Below, piece after piece: positions 16,616-38,863 of a DNA stretch of 50,397 nt; within the stretch, counting starts at the first letter, position 1, and every line of letters begins with the position of its first letter. The translations under genes were made by a program, and so were the position numbers. The notes under the pieces are model-generated. The model was not told the DNA's origin and did no database searches. It worked only from the letters and a program-made list of their open reading frames with translations. The stretch is taken from the NCBI GenBank assembly GCA_017444985.1, contig JAFSVK010000004.1:1-50397 (forward strand), in the 5' to 3' direction. The stretch comes from Bacillota bacterium (GTDB lineage: Bacteria > Bacillota > Clostridia > Lachnospirales > CAG-274).

Positions 16616-18589
16616 TTATTTCATATACCCAAGTTCCCTTGCCTTTTGAATATATCTCTGTCCCATTTCCTCATTCTTTTCCGTTCCACTGCCGTTGATA
16701 TACATCTCGCCTGTCATATAGCAAGCTTCCCCGTCACCCATATCGGCACAAATTTTACGCCACTTAAATGCTTGTTCAATATCTTTCGGGAAATCGACCG
16801 AACCGGTCAGATAGAGGTTTGCAAGATTAAATGCTGCATCTATACTGCCTTGTTTTGCCGCAAGTTCATAATAATAGGCAGCCTTTTCAGCAGATCTTTT
16901 AAATGCACCGAATTCATTTTCGGGTACAAGGTTTCTTGCAAGTTCATATTGAGCTTCCACATCACCGGCATCGGCCATCTCATAATATTTATTGACAAGG
17001 TCCCTATGCTTGTACCATTTTGAACCGGAACCTTGTACTCCGTGAACAACGGACATTTCCAAAATATTTCTTCCTGTGTCGTTATCAAATTTTTCAACAA
17101 TTTCACGAGCATTATCATGTCCGTTTGTCGCAGCCATTTTAAACCAATACATAGCCTTGTCTATATCCACATAAACTCCGCCTTCGCCCCAACGATAACA
17201 CATACCTGCATTGAACATGGCGTCAGCACTGCCTTTTTTTGCAGCCATTTCATAATAATAGCAAGCATAGATAACCATAGGTTTTGAGAATTTACCGCTA
17301 AAGATCATATCCGCAATATGTGAGAGTATACTTACATCGGCAGAACCGTCTTTTATCATCTCAAAAGCCGAAAGGTATATATCCATATCATCGTAGAAAT
17401 CATAACCTGCATATTCGTCCTCAAAAATATATCTTTTGCCGTCAAACTCATCGGAAGTCAAACCAAACTGTTCTAATCTTAAAGCCTGTACTGCACGTTT
17501 TCTCCAAAGTTCTATGCGTTCGACATCTTCTTTCTCCATTTGACCTATCTCTGCCATCTTAATACGACACAAAGGAATAATTATATTAGCATTGAACTGA
17601 GAGTCGTCCGTTAAATTGTCATTTATGTAGTCTATCGGATTTCGGTCGTCAACATATATAGATAAATTTCTGAACAACCGGAAGCAAGCGTTATGGTATG
17701 TTAATATCTTACGCTTTTTGTTTTCATCGTCACAAGAAATGTACATATTGTAATATTGCTTTCTTATATTTATCAATGCATTAAAACAATCCGTTTCTGT
17801 TTGACTTTTTTTCAATTCGGGCAGGGCAGATTCATATACGACAGTAAACACATCCGAGTTATAATATTCTACTTCTTTTTTTAAAAAATCTATGTATAAT
17901 TCCGCTTTAACAGAACCATTTGTGTATTCAATTCCCAACTTATCGGCAAGCTGCATTGCCGGTACAAAACCCATCTTTGCCGATGCTTTTAAATACTCCA
18001 GTCCTTCTTCGATGTTTCTTTCCACGCCATCACCTTGAAGCAAAAGAGTGGCATAATTAAAACTTCCTGCGGATGAACCCATTTCACCACTTATTTTATA
18101 TAAATAAGCAGCTTTGGAATGATCCACTTTAACTACACTATGTCCTGTCATATAAAAATCCGCAAGGAAATAATAACCCCTTTCATTTCCCAAGTTGGCT
18201 GCCATAGCAAACCAATAATATGCTTCAACAAAATTTGTTTCCGTTCCTTCGTGGTTTAAAAACATATATGCGGCATTAAAAGCTGCCATAGCGTGTTCTT
18301 TTGCTCCCGCTGCAGCAAAGTAAGCAATTGCATCTTTGTGATCTTTATCTCTTCCGTTAGTTCCGTTATAGTAATCCGTCCCCATCTGATAAAGAGTTTC
18401 CGCATCATATGACATTATGCCTGCATATGCCATATCAAATGCTTCACTTGCAGAATCTTCATCCACAAACATGCCACCGATTCCACCTTCAGCTATTACA
18501 AAAAGATCAAACACGGATAATCTGTGCAGATCATAGCTCACTCTCATAATGTCATCTTCAATAATCTTAAGATTTTTGTTAATCAACAT
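16616..18589 (-). CDS. Sel1-repeat protein
   Basis: A 657-residue soluble protein built largely of Sel1-like helical repeats, an interaction scaffold. Typical units include AMAAFNAAYMFLNHEGTETN, GSSAGSFNYATLLLQGDG, GSADAMFNAGMCYRWGEGG, GSIDAAFNLANLYLTGSV and GEACYMTGEMYINGSG. A less regular region at about 240-420 separates N- and C-terminal repeat blocks. No signal peptide or membrane segment. GGAGGTG precedes the ATG at 18589; an upstream in-frame start would lie in repeat-derived sequence. It is the last gene of the large minus-strand run, separated from the previous one by repeat copy 3. It could be an adaptor of that system or an unrelated neighbour. Confidence 0.85.
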   Translation of the reverse strand: MLINKNLKIIEDDIMRVSYDLHRLSVFDLFVIAEGGIGGMFVDEDSASEAFDMAYAGIMSYDAETLYQMGTDYYNGTNGRDKDHKDAIAYFAAAGAKEHAMAAFNAAYMFLNHEGTETNFVEAYYWFAMAANLGNERGYYFLADFYMTGHSVVKVDHSKAAYLYKISGEMGSSAGSFNYATLLLQGDGVERNIEEGLEYLKASAKMGFVPAMQLADKLGIEYTNGSVKAELYIDFLKKEVEYYNSDVFTVVYESALPELKKSQTETDCFNALINIRKQYYNMYISCDDENKKRKILTYHNACFRLFRNLSIYVDDRNPIDYINDNLTDDSQFNANIIIPLCRIKMAEIGQMEKEDVERIELWRKRAVQALRLEQFGLTSDEFDGKRYIFEDEYAGYDFYDDMDIYLSAFEMIKDGSADVSILSHIADMIFSGKFSKPMVIYACYYYEMAAKKGSADAMFNAGMCYRWGEGGVYVDIDKAMYWFKMAATNGHDNAREIVEKFDNDTGRNILEMSVVHGVQGSGSKWYKHRDLVNKYYEMADAGDVEAQYELARNLVPENEFGAFKRSAEKAAYYYELAAKQGSIDAAFNLANLYLTGSVDFPKDIEQAFKWRKICADMGDGEACYMTGEMYINGSGTEKNEEMGQRYIQKARELGYMK

Positions 18590-18620
18590 AACAGCACCTC
18601 CATATAATCTCTCAGTATTT

Positions 18621-18644
18621 AGGTGAGCTCTAAAAAGCACTATT
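18621..18644 (+). repeat. Truncated left end of the 157-bp repeat
   Basis: AGGTGAGCTCTAAAAAGCAC plus TATT repeats, with substitutions, the left terminal sequence of the element just before full copy 3. It looks like the remains of an older insertion or a partial duplication. Confidence 0.5.
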
Positions 18645-18648
18645 TAAA

Positions 18649-18799
18649 GGCACCTCTAAAAAGTGCTATTGAAGTAAAATTGAGATATCTTGTTCAAAAA
18701 CCGGGAACCGGCTCGAAGCCAAAGTGGAGCATTGGTGAAAGACATTGACGCCTAAGCCCGGCAAGATAGTCAATTTTACGATTTGTTTTAGATATCACC
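18649..18799 (+). repeat. 157-bp interspersed palindromic repeat, copy 3 (degraded)
   Basis: It starts GGCACCTCTAAAAAGTGC. The centre carries substitutions and the right end is shortened to TTTTAGATATCACC. Despite this decay the right end still supplies the last codons (GDI) and the TAA of the minus-strand gene at 18788. Confidence 0.85.
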
Positions 18800-19627
18800 T
18801 TGAGGAAAACTTTTCTCATTCTTATTCACACTAAAACCTATGTTGGTTACATTTCTCTGTCTTTTCCTATTGCCTATTATGTTCATGAACAAATTTTCCG
18901 ACATGAGGCTTACTGGATTAAAATTTACCCCATTGTTACTGCCATAGTAATACCAAAGCGAAGATTTAAGCCACAGATCCAATATGTGAAAGTTAATATA
19001 GGCTCTGTATCTTACGAGAAAATTTTTCAACCAAACCTTTTGCTTATCCTCTAAAGAAACGGAGTACTCTCGTAACCTTTCCGTGACCCATAGGAAATAC
19101 TCTTCCACTGTAAGATTTTCTACATCATAACAGAGAGTGAAAACCTCATTTTCAAGTAAATTTTGAATTTCGGAATCTTCGTTATTGCTACACGATATAA
19201 AAACCATAAAATTTTTTTTGCATCTGCGAATATCACAAAATAACCGTTCCCACCACAGAATGTCATGCTTAATATTTTTGTAATCTTGGATAACGAGCAT
19301 GATAACACCGTATTCGTAATGATATCTGCCTCTTACAAAATCCAACCATTGCCCCAGTCCTTTTTTATGCTCTCCCGAACCATTTAGTAACAAAAGTTGA
19401 TTTTCTCCTTTTATATATTCTGCCGAAAAGCAAATAAAAGCACTTGAATTAGATGGTATAATATTTTTTTCTTCCAGCTCGAGCCGAAATTCATTCAGAG
19501 TAGACTGCAAAAAACCACTATCCTCTGTATGATTTAACAACAAATAAACAGGACATAGTTCAAACAGTATGTCCCCGTTTACTTTTTTACTTATGCTGTA
19601 AAAATCTTCCTTTATTTTTTTTATCAT
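18788..19627 (-). CDS. Uncharacterised protein following a VirD4-like ATPase gene
   Basis: A 279-residue protein that I do not recognise. It is soluble, without signal peptide or P-loop, and alternates beta-like stretches (AFICFSAEYIKG, GVIMLVIQDYK, NFMVFISCSNN) with helices rich in Trp and Tyr, which recalls a Rossmann-like ATPase fold without its nucleotide motifs. It starts 12 bases after the VirD4-like gene ends, with AGGAAG before the ATG, so the two are coupled and both lie between repeat copies 3 and 4. The final GDI and stop are encoded by degraded repeat DNA. Confidence 0.7.
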   Translation of the reverse strand: MIKKIKEDFYSISKKVNGDILFELCPVYLLLNHTEDSGFLQSTLNEFRLELEEKNIIPSNSSAFICFSAEYIKGENQLLLLNGSGEHKKGLGQWLDFVRGRYHYEYGVIMLVIQDYKNIKHDILWWERLFCDIRRCKKNFMVFISCSNNEDSEIQNLLENEVFTLCYDVENLTVEEYFLWVTERLREYSVSLEDKQKVWLKNFLVRYRAYINFHILDLWLKSSLWYYYGSNNGVNFNPVSLMSENLFMNIIGNRKRQRNVTNIGFSVNKNEKSFPQGDI

Positions 19628-19639: not shown

Positions 19640-21139
19640 TCAATTAAACAGATCCTCTATCGTCGGAGTATCCTTTGTTTCTTCCAATTCTTTCGTCAGT
19701 TTATCATGTACGCATTTTAAAACCGAAAAACAGCTTACCTTCTCATGCCAAGGCAGAGGAATATTATATACATCATATCCCACTTGCGGATATACCGAAA
19801 AATCCTTCACTCGAGAAATATATGGTGCAATTCCCGAACGTAACACAAGTGCCTCACTGTCTTCCCAACCGATTTGCAACCTTTGAAGCTGTGTTATGGT
19901 AAGGAGAGGATATTCTCTTTCATCGATCTCCACACTTCCGCATAATTGCTCGATCTCTTTAAGCAAATTCAACTCTCTGCAGGACAAATATACCCAATTT
20001 TTACAATTGGACTTTATTGTTTCGGCATCATCTCCGTACTCTGCCAAAAGTTGTTGTTTACTTTGCACAACAAGAACAAACCTTATATTTCTGCTGCGGG
20101 CAGCCGAGATCATAGCAGGCATATCCGCTATTTTAGGGAAATTTGAAAACTCGTCAAGTATGAAGTTTACCCTTATGGGAAGGATGCCATTTCTGCAGTC
20201 CTTCGCTTTATCTATAAGGTTTTCGTAACATTGTTTTACAAATACACTTATCAGAAAATGATATGTGGTTTTCTCATCGGGTGTTATTAAATACAGAGCA
20301 GTTTTTTCCTCTGTTATTTTACCGAAGCCTATCTCATTTGCATTGATAAGATCCATCAATTTTTCATTGAATATAAAACTTCTTAACATAGAGTCAAATG
20401 TACTGACAACACAATTCAAAGTTTTTTCCACATTACGCAAAGTATACACCGATGCAAGTTTGTAGCGAACAAGGGAATTTTCGGAGAAAGTCCGTATAAG
20501 ATCCCAAAATATGGAACTTCTCGTTTCCGAAGTATCTTCAATCTCTATATACATCCTCATTCGCTGGATACTTTCCATGTGTATTTTCTTCTCGTCATCC
20601 TCACTTTCAAAAAGCATCAGTATCATTCCCATCAAGAGATCTGCCGCTTGATTTTCCCAGTACAGATCTCTCTCGGAATGCACCTGTGCCTTTAACTGTG
20701 CGCAAAGATCCGAGATCATTTCAATAGCTTTATCCGCATTACCGTTCTTATAGTAACGGTATGGCAGCATAAGAGGATTCCACCTTGAACTTTTTTCCGG
20801 TTCTCGCAGGTTCAGAGTTTTTATGGTATATCCCTTATGTGCCAAAAACCCCGAGGTGTTTCTGTAGATTTCCCCTTTGGGATCTGAAATTATCATAGAT
20901 TCTCCCGCCATCCCAAGAGTATAAACACTCGGTATACAAAAATTTCTTGTCTTTTTTGAACCCGTGTTTCCGAATATTAGGGTATGAGCATCCGTAGTAT
21001 CGGTATAAACAATACCATTTTCGTAATAAAACGGAACTCCCGACAAATTACATTCTGAATTCAAATCTTGTCCTGTAAGTGTCTGAATAAATTCATTTTT
21101 AGTGGATAATCTGTTTCCGTTTAATCTCACTGTTTCCAT
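19640..21139 (-). CDS. VirD4/TraG-like coupling ATPase, altered Walker A, no membrane anchor
   Basis: A 499-residue protein of the conjugative coupling-protein family. The P-loop region reads LIFGNTGSKKTRN: the Gly before the catalytic Lys of GxxGxGKT is Lys (K62). MIISDPKGEIYRNT follows, and Walker B is FILDEFSNFPKIADM (D329, E330), then SRNIRFVLVVQSKQQL. The N-terminal membrane anchor of true coupling proteins is absent. No relaxase, VirB4, VirB6 or oriT-like neighbour is present. Its partner is the unknown protein just downstream, and repeat copies 3 and 4 flank the pair. I infer a domesticated or exchanged payload ATPase attached to the GTPase system; a decayed conjugation remnant is the alternative, but the frame is intact. 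Confidence 0.85.
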   Translation of the reverse strand: METVRLNGNRLSTKNEFIQTLTGQDLNSECNLSGVPFYYENGIVYTDTTDAHTLIFGNTGSKKTRNFCIPSVYTLGMAGESMIISDPKGEIYRNTSGFLAHKGYTIKTLNLREPEKSSRWNPLMLPYRYYKNGNADKAIEMISDLCAQLKAQVHSERDLYWENQAADLLMGMILMLFESEDDEKKIHMESIQRMRMYIEIEDTSETRSSIFWDLIRTFSENSLVRYKLASVYTLRNVEKTLNCVVSTFDSMLRSFIFNEKLMDLINANEIGFGKITEEKTALYLITPDEKTTYHFLISVFVKQCYENLIDKAKDCRNGILPIRVNFILDEFSNFPKIADMPAMISAARSRNIRFVLVVQSKQQLLAEYGDDAETIKSNCKNWVYLSCRELNLLKEIEQLCGSVEIDEREYPLLTITQLQRLQIGWEDSEALVLRSGIAPYISRVKDFSVYPQVGYDVYNIPLPWHEKVSCFSVLKCVHDKLTKELEETKDTPTIEDLFN

Positions 21140-21164: not shown

Positions 21165-21321
21165 GGGTACCTCTAAAAAGTGCTATTGAAGTAAAATTGA
21201 GATAGCTTGTTCGAGGACTAGGAAATGGCTTGAAGCCAATGTAGAGCATTGGTGAGAGACATTGACGACGTACTCGGGCAAGATAGCCAATTTTACGATT
21301 TATGAGTTTTTAGAGGTGCCC
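21165..21321 (+). repeat. 157-bp interspersed palindromic repeat, copy 4
   Basis: Starts GGGTACCTCTAAAAAG and ends TTTTTAGAGGTGCCC. TTTA flanks both ends, a likely 4-bp target duplication. It lies inside the 22-kb minus-strand gene run, 26 bases upstream of the VirD4-like gene, and encodes GHL and the stop of the small gene on its right. Confidence 0.92.
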
Positions 21322-21639
21322 TTTACTGTATTCTTTCAATTTAGCTTTTTTCTCGTTACGTTTAAGCTTTTCATCATATATTATCCGTTCCTCTGGTGTT
21401 GCCCAGTAATCTCTGTATAGAAAACCTATAATAGCGTATGTTTCTTTTAACAAATTCTGTTCTTCAAGTTCTTTTTCTACATCGATATGAAAGTCATAGG
21501 TTTTGTCACGATTCTCTTCAAAAACCTTTAAAATTTCCTTCGGTATTTTATCGTAATCCTCCTTTCTCGTATGTTTTAAAACCTCCAAAACTTCAGTATA
21601 TGCTTGTGGGTTTTTAGATAGATCCAACACAACTTTCAT
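21310..21639 (-). CDS. Small tandem paralogue A (IPKE...DKTYDFHID family)
   Basis: A 109-residue soluble protein with the pattern YTEVLEVLK...DYDKIPKEI...RDKTYDFHID...LLKETYAIIGFLYRDYW. The two genes upstream carry the same pattern, so it arose by tandem duplication. The AGGGAG directly abuts the ATG at 21639, so a GTG three codons in (21630) may be the real start. Its last three residues and stop come from repeat copy 4. I recall similar small proteins in many Firmicutes but know no function. Confidence 0.7.
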   Translation of the reverse strand: MKVVLDLSKNPQAYTEVLEVLKHTRKEDYDKIPKEILKVFEENRDKTYDFHIDVEKELEEQNLLKETYAIIGFLYRDYWATPEERIIYDEKLKRNEKKAKLKEYSKGHL

Positions 21640-21675
21640 CTCCCTGATCGTCTTATATAAAAGTGACCTCTAATA

Positions 21676-22002
21676 TTACTCTTCTTTCATCATATTTTCG
21701 TATTCTTCCAATTTAGCTTTTTTGTCGTTTAACTCCAATATTTTATCAAGCATTTCACGTTTATCGGGAGGTAAAACATATTTTCTGTAAAGCGATACAA
21801 TAAGTGCATCTGTTTCTTTCAAAAGAACCGTATCTTCTAAAGGCTTTGACGCGTCTATGTGAAAATCGTAAGTTTTGTCGCAATATTTCCTGAAAAACAT
21901 AACTTCCTCCTCCGGGATCTTATCCCGATCTTTTTTCGGAAAATATTTCATAACTTCCAATATTTCCGTGTATGCCTTTTCCATTTGAAGCTTATCCGCC
22001 AT
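21676..22002 (-). CDS. Small tandem paralogue B
   Basis: A 108-residue protein starting MADKLQMEKAYTEILEVMK, with KDRDKIPEEE, CDKTYDFHID and LLKETDALIVSLYRKYV aligning to its neighbour at 21310. A GGGGGAG-type ribosome binding site precedes the ATG at 22002; an in-frame start further up is less likely. Function unknown; possibly a small binding or immunity-type protein given its multiplication here. Confidence 0.7.
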   Translation of the reverse strand: MADKLQMEKAYTEILEVMKYFPKKDRDKIPEEEVMFFRKYCDKTYDFHIDASKPLEDTVLLKETDALIVSLYRKYVLPPDKREMLDKILELNDKKAKLEEYENMMKEE

Positions 22003-22035
22003 ATATCTCTCCCCCCTTTTTTTAAACTTCTTCAC

Positions 22036-22236
22036 TCAACATGCTTGTGTAACAAAGGTAATATCCTGTTCTGTCAGATTCTTATTACAATCAAACTTGA
22101 ATGTATTTTTTTTATCTCTCTTGTTTTCTATTTTCTCCAACAAACATTTCGGAATTTTATCAACAATGTATTTTGGTTGCCGTTTTAAAATCTCCCAAAC
22201 TTCTGCATACATTGTAGCTGATTCCTCTTCGGTCAT
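22036..22236 (-). CDS. Small tandem paralogue C, shortened
   Basis: A 66-residue protein with YAEVWEILKRQPKYIVDKIP and NTFKFDCNKNLTEQDI, matching the first half of paralogues A and B but ending at a Cys before the LLKET...LYR helix pair. Either a natural short variant or a copy truncated by an early stop. It starts 12 bases after the TM2 gene ends. Confidence 0.6.
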   Translation of the reverse strand: MTEEESATMYAEVWEILKRQPKYIVDKIPKCLLEKIENKRDKKNTFKFDCNKNLTEQDITFVTQAC

Positions 22237-22248: not shown

Positions 22249-23241
22249 CTAATGATATCTTCCTTCCCCGTCAGCTTTTAAACCTATGGCAAATGCTGCC
22301 CATATTATAAAAGACCAGAGCATAACTATAACAGGAACATAAATAGTCCATCCAAGAAAAAGTGTTAAAAGCAATTGCACAATACCTGTTTTTTTATAAC
22401 TCAAATAAAAACTCTGTGCACCGATAGTTCCCAAAAACAACATAAGTAAAAAAGCTATACCCACTGATTTTCTTGAACGTGCACCTACTTGATAGGGTAT
22501 ATTTGTACCTGCCCCTGTTTGAGCGGGAGCATTTGTTGCAGCTCCTGTTTGGGCGACGGCAGGAGCTTTTGTTGCGGTTCCTGTTTGAGCATTGGCAGAG
22601 GTGTTTCCCAAAGGATCGTAGCGAGTATTGGCAAAGGGATTGTAAGAGGCATTTGTTTGCGGATTTTTAACATTGGTTGCCGGGGATGCTGTTTGCGGAT
22701 TTTTTGCATTGCTTGTAGGGGATGCTGTTTGTGTATCGGCTTTATCCTTTTGCATTCTCCTATTTTTCTCATCCTCAATAAGTTTTCTGTTTCTTGCCTC
22801 TCTGTCATAGTCAAATACTTTATGCAAAGCTTTAAATATTGCATTGGTGACCACTTTGTTATCTTGTCCGAAAAGCGTAGCAATACTTAATTCCATTGCA
22901 GTTTCAAGGCTTTCTCCGACCTTCTTGACCTCAAGCACAAGTTTCTCAAAAAGCTCCGAATATTTAGCCAAGTACTGCAAAACTTTTTCCTTATCCAGAT
23001 TAAACCTATCCGCAAACACCATAAATCTATCAAATAAATAAGGGTAATCTTTTGCTGTAACCTCATCTGTATATTCTCTGACATAACGAATATACATAAC
23101 ATAAAAATTCATACCATATTGAACTATCCAATCTTCAGCAGTGGTTTTTTGGGGATCGTAAAACCCTGATTTTATGAGTTCTATAATAAACTCGCCACCC
23201 TCTGTACTGACTTTATTTAAAATCACTTTGTTTGATGCCAT
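22249..23241 (-). CDS. TM2-domain membrane protein with repetitive linker
   Basis: A 330-residue protein. Residues 1-~160 are a helical cytoplasmic domain (FIIELIKSGFYDPQKTTAEDW and onward). A low-complexity linker follows with tandem TASPxxNxKNPQ units and Ala/Thr/Gln-rich repeats. The C-terminus is a TM2 domain: RSRKSVGIAFLLMLFLGTIG, QSFYLSYKKTGIVQLLLTLF and a final hydrophobic segment. The GGGAGGTG site before the ATG at 23241 fixes the start. The gene follows a ~250-base gap, the largest in the minus-strand run, containing a TATAAT at 23390-23395 region without a good -35, so a second transcript may begin here. Confidence 0.85.
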   Translation of the reverse strand: MASNKVILNKVSTEGGEFIIELIKSGFYDPQKTTAEDWIVQYGMNFYVMYIRYVREYTDEVTAKDYPYLFDRFMVFADRFNLDKEKVLQYLAKYSELFEKLVLEVKKVGESLETAMELSIATLFGQDNKVVTNAIFKALHKVFDYDREARNRKLIEDEKNRRMQKDKADTQTASPTSNAKNPQTASPATNVKNPQTNASYNPFANTRYDPLGNTSANAQTGTATKAPAVAQTGAATNAPAQTGAGTNIPYQVGARSRKSVGIAFLLMLFLGTIGAQSFYLSYKKTGIVQLLLTLFLGWTIYVPVIVMLWSFIIWAAFAIGLKADGEGRYH

Positions 23242-23489
23242 AGCGTACACCTCCCATAAAATATTTTTAATGCTGTTTAAAGTTCCTAAATAAACACAAT
23301 GTATATAACAATGGCATAAACATCTTCTTAACATAACAGATTTATCTAAAAACTGCCTATAAAAGAAAATATTTATGCCACAACCATTATACCCTCACTC
23401 ATAGAGACTATGGTACATACCACATAAATTTAGGCGCTATCATTTCATTTTAATTATCCCTGCGCTTGATAAACGTGCTTAATACAGCA

Positions 23490-24332
23490 TTATTCCATAT
23501 TCTCAGTGTTAAGCTTGTCATATAAGGCAGTATCAAGCTCATACCTGTCAATATCGGAATAATCCCACCACTCTCCTCGATATCCGCTAAACCCGTTCCT
23601 GTACATTACTTCTTCCAATAGCCTTGCATTTGTAGCTGCAGTTTCCGATACATCACTGTAATCTCTGTCTGCAGTCGTCGTAAATTCATCAAACTCCGAG
23701 GGCATCTCCACAGCGGAACCATCTTCATATACCAAAGAAATATCTACCGTATCTCCGCGACTATGACTTGTTATTCCTTTATTCGGATTGGCAACATAGG
23801 TAGGGTCGGGATATGTTTCCCACAATTTCCATTGTGCTTGAGGTGAACGATAGGCATCCCATATCAGAATACGATACCCCATATCTTTAAGTTCCTTTTG
23901 CACCAATATCAGCTTCCTAACGGTACCGTAGCACAAAAATGCCTCTGAATTATCATATATAACTTTTCCCGTAAAATTATTTGTTGTCGCATACCTAAGA
24001 TCTATTTCTGCATCGGGTATATAGTCAAGAATATTAACAAGTTGCCCGTCATCAGGTATGCTTTCATTTAAATTTTCATCCGCCTCGTTCGGGTGTGTTG
24101 TATCCTCCGAAGGTTCTTGTGTTATAACAGATGCAGTTTCCGTGGTGTCTTCTGTAAAGTATTGTGTTATAACAGAGGTATTTTCCGTTGTATCTTCCAA
24201 AGCTGTATTCAAAAACGTCGACTTTACTGTAGTCTGTTCATCAGTATCAACCGATGTATCTTTAGACAAGCATCCTGTAAATACCACAGCATACACCCAT
24301 AATAACAGTAATAATATCAATATTCTTCTCAT
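23490..24332 (-). CDS. VanX-like D-Ala-D-Ala dipeptidase lipoprotein with altered zinc ligand
   Basis: A 280-residue protein of peptidase family M15D. A lipoprotein signal ends at C21 (VVFTGC). Residues ~24-92 are a Thr/Glu-rich spacer with repeated TSVITQ/ASVITQ units. The catalytic domain then shows the VanX markers DYIPDAEIDLRYATTNNF, DAYRSPQAQW, SHSRGDTVDI (H190, D197) and GEWWDYSD. In VanX the last motif is EWWH, whose His binds zinc; here it is Asp (D257), while the catalytic Glu (E254) remains. Activity may be lost or altered. VanX is usually cytosolic, so outward anchoring is also unusual. No vanH/A or VanRS genes lie nearby, arguing against vancomycin resistance. Confidence 0.86.
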   Translation of the reverse strand: MRRILILLLLLWVYAVVFTGCLSKDTSVDTDEQTTVKSTFLNTALEDTTENTSVITQYFTEDTTETASVITQEPSEDTTHPNEADENLNESIPDDGQLVNILDYIPDAEIDLRYATTNNFTGKVIYDNSEAFLCYGTVRKLILVQKELKDMGYRILIWDAYRSPQAQWKLWETYPDPTYVANPNKGITSHSRGDTVDISLVYEDGSAVEMPSEFDEFTTTADRDYSDVSETAATNARLLEEVMYRNGFSGYRGEWWDYSDIDRYELDTALYDKLNTENME

Positions 24333-31582: not shown

Positions 31583-34500
31583 TTACTTCTTTCCTGTCAG
31601 ATCCGGGCTGCAACCTTCTTTAAGCAAAGCTACATACCTACCTTTATCATAGCTGTTTTTTATAAAAAGCTTTCCCTTAAGTCCCGAAGTTAATTTTTGA
31701 CCTTTAACTTCGAAATTCTTACTTTTAAAATTTTCCTTTGTGGGACCTATGGTACAAAAAAGGGAACCGGTATTTTCGTATACGGGAGGAACAGATGGCG
31801 AATATCTTACCTCCATTTCGGGTATAGGTGCATCTTCGGAGAGTTCCAAATGTATTTTATAACTACCGAAAAAGTCCTTTGTAAAGAAATACTTTATTTC
31901 TATCTTCTTTGCATTACAGTAGGCAGTTGTAAATATAGGAACATCATCGAACCTTGTAAATCCCGCAATATAATAGTTCATTGGAGCTATGCTTTTAATT
32001 TCCACATAGCCTAAGGTCATGTATGCTTTTTTGAAGAGTTTATATGAATAACAACCGTCCTCGTCATAGCTTGTGGGTGGCTTTACATTACTGCACACGA
32101 TGTAGAGCATATCAGCATCTTCGGGCCAAGGGTCAAGCTCAAAGTAAAGATTCACACCGTCTGTCCTCATGTTTTTTGTGTTTACGGGCTTAACGTACTT
32201 TACATATTCTTTTTGCCATATACTTGCATACCCACTGTCTATATTTACAGCATATATATATTTTGCCTCTCCTTCTCTTAAACGGAAGGAATATTCGCCT
32301 TTTTTTATAGGCACAACATTTAGAGCATTAAGCCCCATGTTCGACAACATAGCCATATCCGCCCTGCTCCCGGGAACAACGGTATCCGACGCAGAAGAAA
32401 AAAACTTAACTTCTCCCTCATTTTCCAAACCTTCCGTGACTCTAACAATAAAAAGTCCCGCCTCTTCTCCTTTTTCCAGTTCGTATGCCACAGGCTTACT
32501 GAATGCTATTGTTTCGCCGCTTACATTCCAAGGTGGAGATATGTATTTTTTACCGCCGTCTTCCAGTATAAAAAAAACATTATAAAAATACTTTTTCTTT
32601 TTTTCCAAGTGAGAATCCGAAAAGGAGTTTTTACCCGTTTCGTTAATAGGTACTCCCACACCGTAATTTCTTATATTCGGAGCATCACAGCGATATATTT
32701 CCGTTCTTGCCTTACCCTTATCCGCAATATAGCTTATACTTAAGCTTGTTTCGGAGGGTGTAGCATCAAAAGATTTGATTTTCGGAAACACCACTATAGG
32801 TTCTTTCGTTGTTAAAAGAACGGACTTAGAACCTCTTTGAGAAAATATGCCGTAATAATACAAATTCCCCGCATTTAACTTTTTGTCGGTAAAGCCCTTT
32901 TCCACGCCCTTGTATATTTGCGTACCATCGCTGTAGCTAACAGGGAAACCACCCTCTTTTCGTATAAGAATGTAATCGCAACTTCCCTCTGAGTCATCAC
33001 TGTTCCAGCTTAGGGATACTTCACCGTTACTTTCCGAAAAATTATATTTAAAATCTTTTATCGGAGCGGGAGGTATTTTGTTCAGCTCCTCCTCAAGCCC
33101 CGGATAATCCGTTGTCAACTGCTTTACGGAAAATAATATTTTTATTTTTTCCTGTATATTTGTTTGTTTTTGAGCATTGTTCCACGCAAGCTTTGCTCTG
33201 CTTATTCTGTCTTCTATCAGAGAAACCAAGGCTTCATTTGAATATGAGGGTATTCTCCTGCGTATTTTTTCAAGCTCTGTCTTTGCTGTAAAGAACTTAT
33301 TTTCCTCTACGAATTTATTAAGTTTTTCAACAGAGTCGCCTATAATATTTTGTGCACCCGTAAGTTGCGTTCTTATAGGTGCAAGAGCAGGCCAACCCTT
33401 CCAAATTCTTTCTATTTCCTCTATCTGCAGACGCGCAAATTCCAAGTCATACCTGTTTACGGATTCTTGGGCTTTTTTGCACATACTCTCTACCGTATAG
33501 TATATATCAAAGCCAAAGGAACAATCAGTATTTTCACATACTCTTGAATTTACATAATTTGTTTTTGTCCCGCACTTCGGACAAACCATAATAAGGTCTC
33601 TACCGCAGGAAGGACACTTATCGGGAGTTTTTCCCACTTTTTCAAATATATTTGAACAAAAAGGACAAACCACCGTGTTGGGAATATCCTCGGCTATTTT
33701 AATACCTTTATCCTTACAGAAATTTAAAAGTACACTTTCTGCATCGTCTCTGTTTGAAAGTACCTCTGTTATTCTATTTATGTATTTTCCCTTTGTACCT
33801 GTATTTAATACCTTTTCATTGGCATTTTCTATTAAGGAAAATGTTTTGTTTATTTCATTGGTTATTTCTTCAAGTTTTTGGTACTCGGAATATTTTATAT
33901 AATCTTCCTTGTCCAACAATCCAATGGCTGTTGTAAGCTGATCTACCGCTTCTTGTTCTTGATTTTTTGCCGCATGTTCCCAAGCTTTTTTAATTTCCTT
34001 GGCTGCACTCTTTAATTTTCCTTCTTCCGTAAATGCGGAAAAGCTTCCTTTTTTGCCTGTTTTTGCACTGTATTTATTGAGAAAATCAAAATAATCTTTA
34101 CAAGATACGACCATCAAATTTGTTTCATTGGATTTGTAGTTTCTGATAGAAACAGGCTTATAGTCCGAAAGTTGTTTGTTGCTTTTATTTTTCTTTTTTT
34201 CTTTTGGTTTTTCATCGGAAGTGTAAATTTCAATACCCTTTTTATCCGCTTCTCTCTTAACATATTCAAAGGAAAGATTGTTTTCCTCTGCCAATCTTTT
34301 AACTGTTTTTTCCGATATGCCTCCCTTTTCTCCCAATGTAGACAAAGAGGCTATTATTTTTTTATCAACGGTTTTTTTTCCCTCGTTGTATATCTTTTTC
34401 CACTCGGAAGAATCGCTGTATGCCTGCTTTAACATACCGCTTTTATAATATATTTCCGAGTTTGCTCTTACCGTTGCATTTGGAGAGTTTATCCATTTTT

Positions 34501-34594
34501 TGTTAAGTTCTTCAAGCTTTTTATCCAACAATGCTATATCGGAAACAAAAGTCTCTACCGAAAGTTTCATAACATCGGTGTATAAATTTACCAT
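31583..34594 (-). CDS. Large zinc-ribbon scaffold protein of the Hsp70/GTPase system
   Basis: A 1003-residue soluble protein. The N-terminal ~300 residues are helical and Lys-rich. Two zinc ribbons follow (VVCPFCSNIF...CPSCGRD, Cys ~310-330; VCPKCGTKTN...CENTDC, Cys ~338-358). Next is a helical region with coiled-coil character (~365-510), then several beta-sandwich units resembling fibronectin type III (e.g. LSWNSDDSEGSCDYILIRKE). No catalytic motif is visible. GGAGG lies 8 bases before the ATG at 34594. Large zinc-ribbon proteins often accompany such Hsp70 genes; I infer an assembly platform that recruits chaperone and GTPases. The nested hairpin upstream may set its expression separately from the Hsp70 gene. 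Confidence 0.75.
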   Translation of the reverse strand: MVNLYTDVMKLSVETFVSDIALLDKKLEELNKKWINSPNATVRANSEIYYKSGMLKQAYSDSSEWKKIYNEGKKTVDKKIIASLSTLGEKGGISEKTVKRLAEENNLSFEYVKREADKKGIEIYTSDEKPKEKKKNKSNKQLSDYKPVSIRNYKSNETNLMVVSCKDYFDFLNKYSAKTGKKGSFSAFTEEGKLKSAAKEIKKAWEHAAKNQEQEAVDQLTTAIGLLDKEDYIKYSEYQKLEEITNEINKTFSLIENANEKVLNTGTKGKYINRITEVLSNRDDAESVLLNFCKDKGIKIAEDIPNTVVCPFCSNIFEKVGKTPDKCPSCGRDLIMVCPKCGTKTNYVNSRVCENTDCSFGFDIYYTVESMCKKAQESVNRYDLEFARLQIEEIERIWKGWPALAPIRTQLTGAQNIIGDSVEKLNKFVEENKFFTAKTELEKIRRRIPSYSNEALVSLIEDRISRAKLAWNNAQKQTNIQEKIKILFSVKQLTTDYPGLEEELNKIPPAPIKDFKYNFSESNGEVSLSWNSDDSEGSCDYILIRKEGGFPVSYSDGTQIYKGVEKGFTDKKLNAGNLYYYGIFSQRGSKSVLLTTKEPIVVFPKIKSFDATPSETSLSISYIADKGKARTEIYRCDAPNIRNYGVGVPINETGKNSFSDSHLEKKKKYFYNVFFILEDGGKKYISPPWNVSGETIAFSKPVAYELEKGEEAGLFIVRVTEGLENEGEVKFFSSASDTVVPGSRADMAMLSNMGLNALNVVPIKKGEYSFRLREGEAKYIYAVNIDSGYASIWQKEYVKYVKPVNTKNMRTDGVNLYFELDPWPEDADMLYIVCSNVKPPTSYDEDGCYSYKLFKKAYMTLGYVEIKSIAPMNYYIAGFTRFDDVPIFTTAYCNAKKIEIKYFFTKDFFGSYKIHLELSEDAPIPEMEVRYSPSVPPVYENTGSLFCTIGPTKENFKSKNFEVKGQKLTSGLKGKLFIKNSYDKGRYVALLKEGCSPDLTGKK

Positions 34595-34617
34595 ACTCGT
34601 CACCTCCGAAAAATGTA

Positions 34618-34705: not shown

Positions 34706-36280
34706 TTACTTTGTTGCTATTTCGCAGTTAAATTCCGCCTTAACATCTAAATTTCTTGTTTTGTCCACAGCTCTGACTACTACAAGGCCGTCCTTTTCAA
34801 CACCTATGGTTACCTCAATGGGAGAGCCTGCGGGTAAGCCCGGAGGAATACTGAGGGTCGTTTCACCCAAGTAAAGATCCTCGTCTATCTCATAAAACTC
34901 ATCCATGTATGTTGACTGATATATCTTAATAGGTAAGTTTGTGGCATTGTCACCGTTTGTACCGTATACCTCGGAATTTGTAATAGGGAGCAATGAATCT
35001 TTAAATATGATATTGTTTATCTTAGGTTGATTATTCAAAAGCATTCGCACACCAAGGCTCTTAGTGGTTACGGATTGTACATTTATCTCTCCTATGGTCT
35101 TTATTCCATCACCGTACCCTTCCAAAACCCTTTTCCTTTCAGGATCAATAGGTCCGGGAACAGGTGCGGGAATAGGTCCGGGAACGGGTGTGGTAACAGG
35201 TTTGTTTTCCACTTCCTCTACAAGACAAGTATAAGCATAAATACTTGCCCCCTTTGAAACAGAGGTATTAGGTTCATTTATAAATATTTGAAGATCGGGG
35301 AAGTTTTCTTCTATAGCGGCTTTGACCTGCGGCATGTATGACGAACCACCTACAAGTAATATTTTGGTAGGTTTTTCCTCTAATCTGTCGTAAACCGATT
35401 TCGTCAGATCTATAGCGGTATACAAAAGCGTTTTTGTACTTTCCTCAAATTCTTGTCTTGTTACGGTGATATTTGCCGCATGTTGTCTGTCTATTCTTAG
35501 GGAAACATTGGCTACCTCACTTCCCGTAAGGGCAAATTTCGCCTTTTCACAATTTATGGCAAGCTCCTGCTCTATATCGATATCGTAGTCCTCATCATAT
35601 CCCGTTTCTTCGCTGAATTTTTCCTTTACCAATTCTATAAGTTTGGCATCCCAGTTTTTTCCTCCCAAATCGTGGTTTCCGTCGGTGGTCAAAACTCTAA
35701 AATTTTTATCTTCTATTTTCATAGCGGTGATATCAAAGGTTCCGCCACCTAAGTCGAATACCATTATCGTTTCGGGCTCTTTTGACGAGTTCAAACCGTA
35801 ATATATTGCCGAAGCGGTAGGCTCCTCAACAATGCTTATAACATCAAGGCCCGCTTCCAAGCCTGCATTTCTTGTAGCTTCTTTTTCTGCCTGACCAAAA
35901 TAAGCGGGTACGGTAATAACCACTCTTTTAACAACGGAATTCGTATATATACTTGCATCATTTGCCAATTTTTCAAGTATTTTTGCGGAAACGGACACAG
36001 GAGATATTTCCTTTGAATAGTCTTGTCCGTAGTTTACAAAATTGTCTCTACCTATGTGTGTTTTAACAAACATTATGGTATCTTCGGGAAACATTATGGC
36101 ATTATTTTTAGCACTTTCTCCCACTACAGGCTCCGTACCCTCCTGCATACGCACAACGGAAGGTACCGTTTCCTGTCCTTCCACACTTCGGCATGTTACG
36201 TGTTGTCCGTTTTCATCCAAATAACTGATACATGAATAAGTTGTACCCAAATCAATACCAAATACATACTTTTCTTCCAT
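34706..36280 (-). CDS. DnaK-like Hsp70 with proline-rich linker and no lid
   Basis: A 524-residue Hsp70. The ATPase domain is complete: GIDLGTTYSCISY (8-20), VFDLGGGTFDI (174-184) and ILLVGGSSYMPQV (307-319). The usual DVLLLD interdomain linker is replaced by a Pro-rich segment (~360-380, PVPGPIPAPVPGPID). A short beta substrate-binding-like domain follows (GETTLSIPPGLPAGSPIEVT) and the helical lid is missing. It is therefore not the housekeeping DnaK. AAGGAGG lies 7 bases before the ATG at 36280. A GrpE-like gene precedes it, but no J-domain gene is in the window. Likely role: ATP-driven client sensor in this system. Confidence 0.92.
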   Translation of the reverse strand: MEEKYVFGIDLGTTYSCISYLDENGQHVTCRSVEGQETVPSVVRMQEGTEPVVGESAKNNAIMFPEDTIMFVKTHIGRDNFVNYGQDYSKEISPVSVSAKILEKLANDASIYTNSVVKRVVITVPAYFGQAEKEATRNAGLEAGLDVISIVEEPTASAIYYGLNSSKEPETIMVFDLGGGTFDITAMKIEDKNFRVLTTDGNHDLGGKNWDAKLIELVKEKFSEETGYDEDYDIDIEQELAINCEKAKFALTGSEVANVSLRIDRQHAANITVTRQEFEESTKTLLYTAIDLTKSVYDRLEEKPTKILLVGGSSYMPQVKAAIEENFPDLQIFINEPNTSVSKGASIYAYTCLVEEVENKPVTTPVPGPIPAPVPGPIDPERKRVLEGYGDGIKTIGEINVQSVTTKSLGVRMLLNNQPKINNIIFKDSLLPITNSEVYGTNGDNATNLPIKIYQSTYMDEFYEIDEDLYLGETTLSIPPGLPAGSPIEVTIGVEKDGLVVVRAVDKTRNLDVKAEFNCEIATK

Positions 36281-36338
36281 TTTCATTCCTCCTTTTTATT
36301 TGTAAACAGTAACCTTTGCAGGTACTATAACTTTTTCT

Positions 36339-37058
36339 TTATATATAGGTACCGCTTTTTACCTCGGCTACCGTACCGAATGTTGTTCCCTCTCCGAGAG
36401 GTAAGGTTTTTGCAATGCTCATCTTTTTTTCGTTAAAACTTTCTCCTTCGCAAGGGTATTCAATGACAACACCGAAATTCAGCAATATTCCTTCTACATT
36501 TCCCTTGTAGTATTTTACCGTATCATATTGTTCTTTAAGATATGATTTGATGTTTTCGTCTTCGCAATTTTCAAGGTCCCTTTCCAAAGATGCCACATCC
36601 TTGGACAATTCCTTATGCAGGGAAGCGAATTGTATCAAGTAAGGTGATACTATCTCCGTGTAAAAATCGTTCTTGTATTTTTGGTTTTCGTCGGTAAGAG
36701 TTCTTTCGATGGCATCTCTGGCATTTGTGGCGGAGACCAATGAAGACAGCATTACCCTTATTTTACTTATTTCACTTTTAATTGTGGTTATTTCACCGGA
36801 CACATCAGGAGAACAATTATTTTCGGCAGTCGTCTTTTGTTTATTTTCTGCTTGACTTTCCTCCGCACCCGATTCTTTTGTATCCTTTTCTTCGGGTTCC
36901 GCATCACATTCATCTTGAGAGACCGTATCTAAGTTATCTTCTACCTTCTCCGAAAAATTGTCATTCACTTCGGAAACCTCGGGTTCTTCTCCTTCGTTGT
37001 TTACAACGACCACATCATCTTCATCACAAAGATCGTAAATGTTTTCTTTTTCTTCCAT
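36339..37058 (-). CDS. GrpE-like nucleotide exchange factor
   Basis: A 239-residue protein. An acidic low-complexity N-terminus (~1-90) is followed by a long helix (EITTIKSEISKIRVMLSSLV, then DAIERTLTDENQKYKNDFYT) and a helical bundle. The end carries a GrpE-like beta segment (YPCEGESFNEKKMSIAKTLP, then TTFGTVAEVKSGTYI). It lies directly before the Hsp70 gene and 11 bases after the membrane GTPase gene, supporting a dedicated exchange factor. Sequence drift from ordinary GrpE is large, so this rests on layout plus context. Confidence 0.75.
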   Translation of the reverse strand: MEEKENIYDLCDEDDVVVVNNEGEEPEVSEVNDNFSEKVEDNLDTVSQDECDAEPEEKDTKESGAEESQAENKQKTTAENNCSPDVSGEITTIKSEISKIRVMLSSLVSATNARDAIERTLTDENQKYKNDFYTEIVSPYLIQFASLHKELSKDVASLERDLENCEDENIKSYLKEQYDTVKYYKGNVEGILLNFGVVIEYPCEGESFNEKKMSIAKTLPLGEGTTFGTVAEVKSGTYI

Positions 37059-37069
37059 ATTTTTATCTC

Positions 37070-38863
37070 CTATTTCAATTGTTTTTCTATAAGTTCCATA
37101 TAATCGGAGGAATTCGCCGCATATATTTTTCTTTGAGCCTCTGTAATATCTCCTATGATATCTTTGTTTCTTTTACGCCATATATTTTTCATGCCCGAGT
37201 CGGATCTTGTTATTATCCAGTAAACGGCAAGATCTATATTGTTTGGCATAAATCTAACCAACGCTCCTTTTGGCACATATCCCATTGATGTACAAGAAAA
37301 GAAATGTACATTATTAAACATATTGTCCAAGAGAGTAACGGCATTACCCTTTCCGTTAGCCTTCAAAAACTCTCTGCAAAGATAGTCCATGGTGTTAAAC
37401 GGATTGTTATAGACATTAGGCTTAAGCTGCATGAGCCTATTTATGGCAGTATCACCTATTCTATCCGTCAAGCCCTTTGTATCAACTTTGTTTATCGCCA
37501 CAGCCACAGGAAGATTGTACTTATTGCCGCTTTTTTTCATACCCGCTATCTCACTTACGGTATCTACAAATCTCTGCACAAGATTATTAACATCTATGAT
37601 ACTCTTATCATACATTCCCGCATCTTCGTCAAGATTTGCCGCAACATCCAAAGAGTAAGGATCTATTATAAGCACAACACCTTCACTGAAACTGAAATGC
37701 GTAAGTCTTTCCTTTGCATTGTTCCGCTCAAAGACCTCACCCGGCATATCGTAGAGGTGCATATACCGCGGAACATCAAGTTCCTTGGAATTTATTAGCA
37801 AATTAAATGAGGTTATATCATATTCCGCACCCACATTTGTTTTTGCTATAAGTCTTTTTCCTATAAAGCATTCCTTTATAAGTCCATATTCATCTTGATC
37901 GACTTTAACAGGTATATCAACATCAAGACCCAGTTGTAAAGAATCTTCGTTTATAAACTTATAGAGAAAAGAGGTTTTGAATGTAGTCTTACCTGCTCCA
38001 ACTCCTCCTATAAGTGCAACACCCAGAGGACGGGAAAGTCCCGCTTTATCCGTGTTTTTACATATAGGACAAAGTGCGTTAAGTTCGCTTCTCTTTAAAT
38101 TCGAAACTCCCTTTGAAAAGCCCGTACAGGGCAACACTTCACCGCAGGCACACACTCTTTTAAATATACCGAATTTACTCGGACGAAGAGACATATGTTC
38201 AACAGAACACTTAGGGCATACATATATGGGCAGTTTATAAGCACCCTTGCAATAATCACACCTGTAAGATATTTTCTTTGAGGTAAAGAATAATCTCTCT
38301 ATACCCATACATATAAGTGCAAATATCCTGTAGAAGAATGTAATTATAAGACCCAATGCAGATGTCAATACACTTAAAAGTATTGAGATCACAAAGCCAA
38401 AGGATACAATAGAGAGTATTTGCAAACCGTTTTTCACAAGGGAAAGTAACTTTAAAAAGAAAGAATTGGCCAAATATATATTTCCTTTGCATAATTGTAT
38501 TTCATACTGCATTCTCCGCCACATATGTTTGGAAACATTAAGAGCATCTTTTATCAACTGTCCGTTAAAATAGCTACTTCTTGCAAATTGCTCATAATAC
38601 TTTCTGTTGCCGTTTTCATCAAGCTCTACATTCTTATAATAATTCTTGTCGAGTTCCCTTGCCACTTGTTCAAAATTCACGGCAAAAACGGCATAAAAGA
38701 AACTGCTTAAGGCAGTATACATACCTAATATAGCGCCAACTATTCCCGCAACAATAAGTATCAACACCCCGATTGAAACTACCGCAGCCAATATATACGC
38801 CAAAAAATAGAATATCGCCACTATAACAAACAGGCACCCTAAGCATCCGTAACCGTTATCCAA
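37070..38863 (-). CDS. Membrane zinc-ribbon GTPase, DO-GTPase2-like
   Basis: A 597-residue protein. Hydrophobic segments lie at ~10-60 and ~150-190. Zinc ribbons follow (YRCDYCKGAYKLPIYVCPKC, CACGEVLPC, LCPICKN at ~201-269). The GTPase domain has Walker A GGVGAGKTT (286-294), MHLYDMPGEVF as switch II and VAINKVDT as the base-recognition motif. The overall pattern matches the TRAFAC double-GTPase type. It starts with TTG at 38863, with AAAGGAAG 9 bases upstream; the nearby ATG is out of frame. It is the first gene of the operon and the likely membrane sensor or trigger. Confidence 0.84.
   Translation of the reverse strand: MDNGYGCLGCLFVIVAIFYFLAYILAAVVSIGVLILIVAGIVGAILGMYTALSSFFYAVFAVNFEQVARELDKNYYKNVELDENGNRKYYEQFARSSYFNGQLIKDALNVSKHMWRRMQYEIQLCKGNIYLANSFFLKLLSLVKNGLQILSIVSFGFVISILLSVLTSALGLIITFFYRIFALICMGIERLFFTSKKISYRCDYCKGAYKLPIYVCPKCSVEHMSLRPSKFGIFKRVCACGEVLPCTGFSKGVSNLKRSELNALCPICKNTDKAGLSRPLGVALIGGVGAGKTTFKTSFLYKFINEDSLQLGLDVDIPVKVDQDEYGLIKECFIGKRLIAKTNVGAEYDITSFNLLINSKELDVPRYMHLYDMPGEVFERNNAKERLTHFSFSEGVVLIIDPYSLDVAANLDEDAGMYDKSIIDVNNLVQRFVDTVSEIAGMKKSGNKYNLPVAVAINKVDTKGLTDRIGDTAINRLMQLKPNVYNNPFNTMDYLCREFLKANGKGNAVTLLDNMFNNVHFFSCTSMGYVPKGALVRFMPNNIDLAVYWIITRSDSGMKNIWRKRNKDIIGDITEAQRKIYAANSSDYMELIEKQLK

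What the first reader, a model, noticed from the sequence alone, without database searches (positions are those of the whole stretch)
16616..38863. 22-kb one-strand operon combining two zinc-ribbon GTPases, Hsp70/GrpE, GAP1, an ABC transporter and a mixed payload
Seen: consecutive minus-strand genes with tight spacing for a membrane GTPase, GrpE-like, Hsp70, scaffold, soluble GTPase, ABC pair, GAP1, SLH membrane protein, VanX-like, TM2, small paralogues, VirD4-like, unknown and Sel1 genes. Known: double GTPases and GAP1 were described by comparative genomics as parts of NTPase-based conflict systems whose variable partners are often borrowed, sometimes inactive, modules. Inference: GTPases plus Hsp70 form a threshold switch at the membrane and the distal genes are the effector or payload part. 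I do not recall this exact set being described as one system.
Basis: partly seen in the sequence, partly recalled or inferred. Interest (0 to 1): 0.92.

Follow-up and report, generated by a model that had tools for sequence, protein, structure and literature searches.

The report
Membrane GTPase–Hsp70 conflict operon with exporter
This bacterial genome carries a described but apparently never tested kind of conflict system, built from two GTPases, their partner GAP1 and a private Hsp70 chaperone, and this version has also taken in a small membrane exporter and probably a cell-wall-binding surface protein.

Summary
The gene run is real, but it is at least two things, not one. Window 38863-25840 (minus strand) is a GAP1-N2-type double-GTPase system of the Hsp70/GrpE theme, described by comparative genomics in Kaur et al. 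2020 (PMC7159879): membrane DO-GTPase, GrpE, Hsp70, zinc-ribbon/FNIII scaffold, soluble DO-GTPase and GAP1. Profiles for all six parts hit in 31 of 51 relative loci of 19 kb or more. What departs from the paper's main text is an ABC-2-like exporter pair between soluble GTPase and GAP1, found in the window and in 4 of 6 informative near relatives, and a changeable surface-binding gene after GAP1: C-type lectin in 6 of 6 near relatives, SLH plus NADase-type discoidin here. The distal VirD4-like, unknown and small genes have relatives grouped together, without GTPase genes in view, in two other genomes, and repeat copies separate them here. Most likely mechanism (inferred): GTP/ATP-fuelled assembly at the membrane, triggered through the surface protein, gates the exporter or an envelope-directed output. 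I found no functional test. New variant of a known kind.

The parts
37070..38863 (-). membrane DO-GTPase with zinc ribbons and two long N-terminal hydrophobic stretches
   Evidence: Pfam DO-GTPase2 2.6e-6; motifs and hydropathy; relatives
36339..37058 (-). divergent GrpE (Hsp70 nucleotide-exchange factor)
   Evidence: 7-member profile: PDB GrpE 4ani 1.5e-5, 3a6m 0.0028; no Pfam GrpE hit for the single protein
34706..36286 (-). Hsp70 with ATPase domain and beta substrate-binding domain
   Evidence: Pfam HSP70 1.3e-84; alignment to DnaK 2v7y covers the ATPase and part of the beta domain
31583..34603 (-). scaffold: N-terminal helical part, zinc ribbons, helical repeats, C-terminal beta-sandwich (FNIII) domains
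   Evidence: AlphaFold model, mean pLDDT 87, pTM 0.45; best match fibronectin FNIII, Foldseek E 6.5e-13; VIA Z 12.7, rmsd 4.0, 170 aligned; invariant Cys
30291..31466 (-). soluble DO-GTPase with N-terminal zinc ribbons
   Evidence: Pfam DO-GTPase1 4.9e-7; G1, DxxGE and SKxD motifs
29384..30271 (-). ABC transporter ATPase
   Evidence: Pfam ABC_tran 6.1e-24; closest solved: ABCA and NosF ATPases
28540..29382 (-). ABC-2-like (exporter-type) membrane subunit
   Evidence: no family hit; AlphaFold model from 5 sequences, pLDDT 72; Foldseek top PmtCD, TM 0.64, prob 1.00, E 8.9e-3, then PmtCD and NosFY entries
25840..28539 (-). GAP1 (N2 type by alignment to relatives)
   Evidence: GAP1-M 6e-7; GAP1-M in 11 of 11 and GAP1-N2 in 10 of 11 aligned members, the window being the one without an N2 hit
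24352..25818 (-). protein with two hydrophobic stretches, three SLH stretches and a NADase-type discoidin-like glycan-binding domain; membership by position
   Evidence: Pfam and NCBIfam; hydropathy; PDB SLH relatives and one ADP-ribosyl cyclase/NADase entry
23490..24332 (-). VanX-like M15 peptidase with N-terminal hydrophobic stretch; EWWD where VanX 1r44 has EWWH; membership by position
   Evidence: Pfam M15 2.7e-34; alignment to 1r44
22249..23334 (-). TM2-domain protein; membership of the system not supported
   Evidence: Pfam TM2 1.8e-7; no relative in the 100 relative loci at E 1e-5
21310..22236 (-). small genes: 22236-22036 (read by eye), 22035-21676, 21639-21310; distal module
   Evidence: relatives of the latter two beside orphan VirD4 genes in L151 and L155
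21159..21301 (.). copy of a genome-wide repeat, 143 bp, MITE-like
19640..21139 (-). orphan VirD4-like ATPase, Walker A GNTGSKKT; distal module
   Evidence: NCBIfam conju_CD1115 5.2e-83; relatives and motif
18788..19627 (-). unknown partner of the VirD4-like ATPase; distal module
   Evidence: no family hit; relatives beside VirD4 in L143/L155 and L151
18642..18784 (.). second copy of the repeat, 85% identical to the first
16616..18640 (-). Sel1-repeat protein; link to the system unresolved (one relative, L125/L144, also lies downstream of a DO-GTPase locus)
   Evidence: Pfam Sel1 3.3e-48; 34% over 694 columns; at E 1e-50 only the window's own of 246 genomes

Best explanation
The stretch 38863-25840, probably with the next one or two genes to 23490, is one membrane-associated DO-GTPase/GAP1-N2 system of the Hsp70/GrpE theme, extended by an ABC-2-like exporter. 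Shown by sequence or predicted fold: family identity, GTPase and Hsp70 motifs, a private GrpE, an FNIII scaffold, and conserved order. Inferred: the two GTPases act as a paired GTP switch, one of them in the membrane; GAP1 couples them to the output; the FNIII/zinc-ribbon scaffold and the Hsp70/GrpE pair drive ATP-dependent assembly and reset; the surface glycan- or wall-binding protein after GAP1 reports a disturbed or foreign surface (phage adsorption, a competitor, wall damage); the switched-on complex then opens or fuels the exporter, or acts on the envelope. The distal TM2/small/VirD4/unknown genes are not part of it.
For: Families. Core order: of 80 relative loci, profile hits (E 1e-4) for GAP1 in 74, FNIII scaffold 72 (short partial proteins included), membrane-type GTPase 57, Hsp70 48, GrpE 41; of the 51 loci of 19 kb or more, 31 have all six. 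The exporter lies exactly between soluble GTPase and GAP1 in the window, L056, L057, L060 and L061. These fall in one 100/100 clade of nine rows that also holds L058 and L059 (nested by the window at 95/96, no exporter genes there) and L063 and L064 (none between GTPase and GAP1); loss in L058/L059 is the simplest reading. A fused ABC half-transporter (ABC_tran plus ABC2_membrane) lies in the GTPase-GAP1 interval of L042, with other genes beside it, and by ATPase match and size in L040; both sit in the other, 52-row clade, which suggests a separate association. Surface-binding genes follow GAP1: one or two Lectin_C stretches in L056, L057, L059, L060, L061 and, by profile, L058; SLH-discoidin here, 21 bp after GAP1. 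Elsewhere surface- or wall-type domains are fused to GTPases: FGE-sulfatase (C-type lectin fold, per Kaur et al.) in L091 and L130, whose GTPase part is called by phmmer (3e-44, 7e-44) and not by Pfam; PEGA in L130 and L101; SH3 in L084 and L106.
Against: No experiment in any organism was found. Gating of the exporter is not shown; it could be a passenger or a self-protection gene, and 2 of 6 informative near relatives lack it. The exporter subunit rests on a moderate model with no Foldseek hit under 1e-3. The window's surface protein is not hit by the profile of the relatives' lectins, and neither it nor the M15 gene has a relative in the 100 loci at E 1e-5 (one weak SLH match, 4e-4, L089). 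PADLOC, with 10 of the 16 proteins scanned, gave only weak hits to VirD4 and Sel1. L056, L057 and L062 have no FNIII scaffold gene between Hsp70 and GTPase, so the scaffold is not always needed.
Confidence: 0.5

Rival explanations
1. Envelope or social function, not immunity: the GTPase/Hsp70 machine assembles or exports surface lectins and wall proteins and monitors the cell surface, as a household or adhesion device.
For: Lectin, SLH, discoidin, PEGA, SH3 and M15 domains all concern the surface or wall; the exporter subunit resembles PmtCD and NosFY; no match of the soluble GTPase in phages, plasmids or viral contigs.
Against: Patchy presence, own genome counted: soluble GTPase in 5 of 97 relatives at 1e-10, GAP1-M in 26 of 392 genomes of the order; accessory genes change between near relatives.
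Confidence: 0.25
2. The ABC pair is a passenger: an unrelated exporter that inserted once between GTPase and GAP1 and rides on the promoter.
For: Confined to one clade, missing from 2 of 6 informative near relatives.
Against: Kept between the same two genes in five divergent loci, with 0-19 bp spacing in the window; an ABC half-transporter of another build lies in the GTPase-GAP1 interval of L042 and probably L040.
Confidence: 0.15
3. One reading: all of 38863-16616 is one operon and the VirD4/Sel1/TM2 genes are its effectors.
For: One strand throughout; the four minus-strand terminator-like sites in 21000-39200 all lie inside genes; a Sel1 relative (34%, 694 columns) lies downstream of another Hsp70-theme locus, L125/L144.
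Against: Relatives of VirD4, unknown and small genes sit together without GTPase relatives in two other genomes; repeat copies separate the blocks; at E 1e-5 no distal gene but that Sel1 recurs on the GTPase strand in 100 relative loci; two weaker Sel1 hits are on the other strand.
Confidence: 0.1

Closest known systems
[quoted passage not shown] 2020, PMC7159879; section 29 read whole, other passages)
   Same: Paired DO-GTPases with zinc ribbons, one in the membrane; GAP1; Hsp70; GrpE; FNIII protein; variable surface-type accessories; firmicutes among the hosts
   Different: ABC-2-like exporter pair between GTPase and GAP1; Lectin_C or SLH-discoidin gene after GAP1. In the main text 'abc transporter' occurs 0 times, 'transporter' once in a cited title, 'lectin' 3 times (the FGS fold and cited titles), 'SLH', 'S-layer' and 'discoidin' 0 times. 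Its figures and source data were not seen. No second Hsp70 in the window
GAP1-N2 tubulin theme (same paper)
   Same: DO-GTPase and GAP1; the window's own genome also carries one on another contig (L036)
   Different: Tubulin-like and vWA proteins instead of Hsp70/GrpE
PmtCD and NosFY ABC exporters (PDB matches)
   Same: Predicted fold of the membrane subunit; ATPase closest to ABCA-type and NosF ATPases
   Different: Substrate unknown here; no GTPase link in those systems (recalled)
VirD4-like coupling proteins, CD1115 family (distal gene)
   Same: NCBIfam model 279 bits over a cut-off of 250
   Different: No relaxase or T4SS gene among the 16 window genes scanned; Walker A has KK in 6 of 6 orphan members, GK in 2 of 2 plasmid members displayed

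Membership tests
GAP1-N2 DO-GTPase system, Hsp70/GrpE theme | DO-GTPase family GTPase with Walker B glutamate | tested here: met
   Pfam hits just over curated cut-off for both proteins; DxxGE in both
GAP1-N2 DO-GTPase system, Hsp70/GrpE theme | if two GTPases, one with N-terminal TM helices (four) and one C-terminal | tested here: inconclusive
   two long N-terminal hydrophobic stretches (hydropathy only); number of helices not settled; no C-terminal stretch found
GAP1-N2 DO-GTPase system, Hsp70/GrpE theme | GAP1 with N2-type N-terminal domain | tested here: inconclusive
   GAP1-M met; N2 profile hits 10 of 11 aligned members but not the window protein itself, though its N-terminus aligns with theirs
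GAP1-N2 DO-GTPase system, Hsp70/GrpE theme | Hsp70 and GrpE genes | tested here: met
GAP1-N2 DO-GTPase system, Hsp70/GrpE theme | FNIII-repeat protein | tested here: met
   by predicted fold; no Pfam FN3 hit in 6 members
GAP1-N2 DO-GTPase system, Hsp70/GrpE theme | FNIII protein typically fused to DnaJ or TPR | tested here: inconclusive
   helical parts at 1-121, 145-298 and 365-508 in the model; their nature was not established
GAP1-N2 DO-GTPase system, Hsp70/GrpE theme | role in biological conflict | not testable with these tools
   no functional data found
ABC-2-type exporter | ABC ATPase beside a six-helix type V membrane subunit | tested here: inconclusive
   ATPase Pfam met; subunit by model, Foldseek prob 1.00 and TM 0.64 to PmtCD but E 8.9e-3 and pLDDT 72
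conjugative type IV secretion system (VirD4-like gene) | relaxase and T4SS genes near the coupling protein | tested here: inconclusive
   none among the 16 window genes scanned; other window genes were seen as ORFs of 12000-44000 only, and the orphan loci were scanned for only a few genes
active VanX dipeptidase | EWWH motif with zinc-ligand His (role recalled) | tested here: not met
   EWWD in the window protein

The most novel reading that the evidence does not exclude
A chaperone-driven GTPase switch that directly gates an ABC exporter in response to a swappable surface-glycan sensor: a bacterial conflict system whose output is secretion or envelope permeability, with the sensor exchanged (lectin, discoidin/SLH, or fused C-type-lectin-fold FGS) as phages or rivals change.
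Probability: 0.22. Interest if true: 0.8.

Novelty: new variant of a known kind. Interest (0 to 1): 0.5.

Why it matters
The DO-GTPase/GAP1 systems were predicted in 2020, and my searches found no experimental paper on them. A variant with its own transporter and an identifiable surface-binding gene gives a concrete guess at input (surface glycan) and output (export or envelope). A named strain record (Ruminococcus sp. YE71, L056) holds a compact version of eight genes, ending beside what looks by eye like a household gene.

Tried and rejected
One 22-kb operon: set aside because relatives of the VirD4, unknown and small genes are grouped elsewhere and repeat copies lie between the blocks. Conjugative element: no relaxase or T4SS gene among the 16 genes scanned; not excluded. 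Phage or plasmid origin of the soluble GTPase: no tblastn match in 50,697 phage and 72,556 plasmid records, none in viral contigs. Empty-site test in the two same-genus genomes: failed; in G002 only the pheA-like gene matches and no tRNA was found in the stretch, in G001 it lies near a contig end. Insertion beside the tRNA cluster is thus unproven; lower G+C (0.32-0.40 against 0.40 and 0.43 in the flanks) is suggestive only. Wider search for the exporter subunit: 4 of 391 genomes of the class, own included; the other three are weak, with only an ABC ATPase of the window's proteins beside them in 3-4 kb. Promoter scan: as many hits as in shuffles (67 against 67.3), so no promoter is claimed; an extended -10-like TGTTATAAT upstream of 38863 was seen by eye. 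PADLOC: no hit for the six core-side proteins scanned (Hsp70 and the ABC ATPase were not given to it). A PDB profile search with the soluble GTPase gave nothing under 0.05.

Biases: the 80 loci are the best of 289 confirmed, found with a GTPase alignment that included Hsp70-theme members. L044 and L118 are one locus, as are L050 and L111; L077 and L081 share a genome, as do L107 and L108. The exporter and lectin profiles were built from loci that they then count. The two GTPase profiles hit the same 168 ORFs each, so 'membrane' and 'soluble' in relatives mean the better-scoring profile, with TM helices not checked. 'All six present' does not require one strand (L119 has Hsp70 and GrpE on the other). 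The tree used 61 of 82 rows, is midpoint-rooted and carries a long-branch warning. Lectin profile hits outside the near relatives are weak or apart: L083 (2.1e-20, but no Lectin_C by Pfam) and L127 (Lectin_C 1.6e-6). Single-sequence phmmer misses distant GAP1 proteins.
Full report
What is there. From the ORF list, sixteen minus-strand genes in a row lie between 38863 and 16616, just beyond three tRNA genes at 16294-16561. Pfam assigns DO-GTPase, Hsp70, ABC_tran, GAP1-M, SLH, NADase-type discoidin, M15, TM2, T4SS coupling protein and Sel1 domains. The GrpE-like gene has no Pfam GrpE hit alone, but a profile of seven relatives has solved GrpE chains as its two best hits (1.5e-5, 0.0028). The 1006-residue scaffold has no FN3 hit in Pfam, yet its model (36 sequences, mean pLDDT 87) matches fibronectin FNIII repeats (E 6.5e-13; VIA Z 12.7, rmsd 4.0 over 170 residues). 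The Hsp70 aligns with the DnaK ATPase domain and part of the beta substrate-binding domain. Both GTPases keep P-loop, DxxGE and N/SKxD motifs.

Is it known? Section 29 of Kaur et al. 2020 (PMC7159879; read whole; other passages by word search) describes GAP1-N2 systems with zinc-ribbon GTPases, one of a pair carrying TM helices, an FNIII protein, and a theme of about 14% of neighbourhoods with Hsp70 and GrpE, mainly in actinobacteria and firmicutes. The window's core fits this. GAP1-N2 profile hits occur in 10 of 11 aligned members and GAP1-M in 11 of 11; the window protein itself shows only GAP1-M. So the core is a member of a described kind. Searches for later or experimental work listed that paper and no test of these systems. 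Two listed titles bear on the idea and were seen as listings only: DnaJ in phage sensing by a bacterial NLR-like protein (PMC12169576) and retroelement-diversified conflict-system sensors (PMC10907252).

What stays together. A genome-contig scan with a soluble-GTPase alignment confirmed 289 relatives; the best 80 were kept. With iterated profiles at E 1e-4, of these 80: GAP1 in 74, FNIII scaffold 72 (short partial proteins included), membrane-type GTPase 57, Hsp70 48, GrpE 41, ABC-2 subunit 4. Of the 51 loci of at least 19 kb, 31 have all six core parts, across Bacillota, Actinomycetota, Spirochaetota, Bacteroidota, Acidobacteriota and others (organisms). Sixteen of the 51 lack Hsp70 or GrpE: ten Clostridium, four Streptomyces, one Paenibacillus, one Marinilabiliaceae. 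The system is patchy near home, own genome counted: GTPase in 5 of 97 relatives, GAP1-M in 26 of 392 genomes of the order, 22 over cut-off.

What is unusual. Between soluble GTPase and GAP1 lie an ABC ATPase and a membrane subunit. The subunit had no family or PDB sequence hit; its model (5 sequences, pLDDT 72) is closest to PmtCD and NosFY (Foldseek prob 1.00, TM 0.64, best E 8.9e-3). The same four-gene order is in L056, L057, L060 and L061; L058 and L059 have no ABC genes there and L062 ends inside the GTPase. The GTPase tree puts all of these except L062 in one 100/100 clade of nine with L063 and L064, the window beside L056/L057 and L058/L059 (95/96), so the exporter was probably present in the ancestor of the window and the Ruminococcus loci and lost in L058/L059. 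A fused ABC half-transporter lies in the GTPase-GAP1 interval of L042 (ABC_tran and ABC2_membrane), with other genes beside it, and, by ATPase match and size only, L040, in the other large clade. After GAP1, L056, L057, L059, L060 and L061 carry a protein with one or two Lectin_C stretches, L058 too by profile. The window has instead a protein with two hydrophobic stretches, three SLH stretches and a NADase-type discoidin, then an M15 protein; neither has a relative in the 100 loci at E 1e-5. Elsewhere surface-type domains are fused to a GTPase: FGE-sulfatase in L091 and L130, PEGA in L130 and L101, SH3 in L084 and L106 (the GTPase part of L091 and L130 by phmmer). Kaur et al. already describe SH3, PEGA and FGS; separate Lectin_C genes, SLH-discoidin and the exporter are not in their main text, whose figures and source data I did not see.

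What does not belong. The VirD4-like gene has relatives of 41-66% identity in 5 of 150 genomes of another family, the genome used as centre included. In L143/L155 (one genome) and L151 it lies beside relatives of the unknown gene and of the small genes, with no match to the window's GTPase or GAP1 proteins in stretches of 16-20 kb. In L152-L154 the VirD4 relative has a neighbour of about 300 residues but no detectable relative of the other two. All six orphan VirD4 proteins share a KK Walker A. In the window the VirD4-unknown pair is bounded by two copies of a 143-bp repeat, 85% alike, with 41 matches listed in the genome (40 of 305 candidates scored). The Sel1 gene is unresolved: one relative in L125/L144 sits downstream of another DO-GTPase locus (34% over 694 columns), none in 245 other genomes at E 1e-50. 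TM2 is unassigned.

How it most likely works. Shown: parts, motifs, order. Predicted in the cited paper, not tested: DO-GTPases as dimeric switches, GAP1 as coordinator, FNIII as contact with the invader, Hsp70 as a multimer-forming component. My inference: the surface protein is the input and the exporter, or envelope damage, the output. The VanX-like protein carries EWWD in place of EWWH, so if it acts it may do so as a binder rather than as a dipeptidase; the ligand role of that His is recalled. I put the family assignment near 0.95, the membrane-conflict role near 0.6 and exporter gating near 0.25-0.35.

Noticed in passing
window 18642-18784, 21159-21301 and 2-137; whole genome G000: A 140-145 bp MITE-like repeat has 41 listed matches in the genome (40 of 305 candidates scored), many at contig ends, so it probably breaks the assembly; by eye one copy's end runs into the 3' end of the last small gene.
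   Followed up: partly
window 18788-22236; L151, L152, L153, L154, L155: Orphan VirD4-like ATPases with a KK Walker A (6 of 6), each beside a partner of about 250-310 residues and in two genomes a small-gene relative: a possible undescribed chromosomal module. L151 has a second VirD4-like gene with a normal P-loop. Conjugation genes were not searched systematically there.
   Followed up: partly
L036 (own genome, contig C125); L055 (same-genus genome G002): The genome carries a second, tubulin-theme DO-GTPase/GAP1 system (Tubulin_2, DO-GTPase2, GAP1-M below cut-off, vWA). L055 has a like run of gene lengths around a GTPase.
   Followed up: partly
window 23490-24332: VanX-like M15 protein with EWWD instead of EWWH.
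   Followed up: partly
L091, L130 (Treponema): DO-GTPase-like protein with a C-terminal FGE-sulfatase domain, with PEGA in L130; worth checking for diversity-generating retroelements nearby.
   Followed up: no
L101: Membrane-type DO-GTPase with PEGA, TPR and TonB_C domains in an Acidobacteriota genome.
   Followed up: no
L056, L057, L062: Ruminococcus versions with Hsp70 directly followed by the soluble GTPase: no FNIII scaffold and no second Hsp70 called.
   Followed up: partly
L040: Two GAP1 genes on opposite strands about 2 kb apart, one with the ABC half-transporter and FNIII gene, the other with two Hsp70 genes and a GrpE fragment.
   Followed up: no
L144 16113-17045 and L151 3360-3803: Similar-looking proteins (starts read by eye, not tested) lie next to Sel1-repeat genes in both loci.
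   Followed up: no
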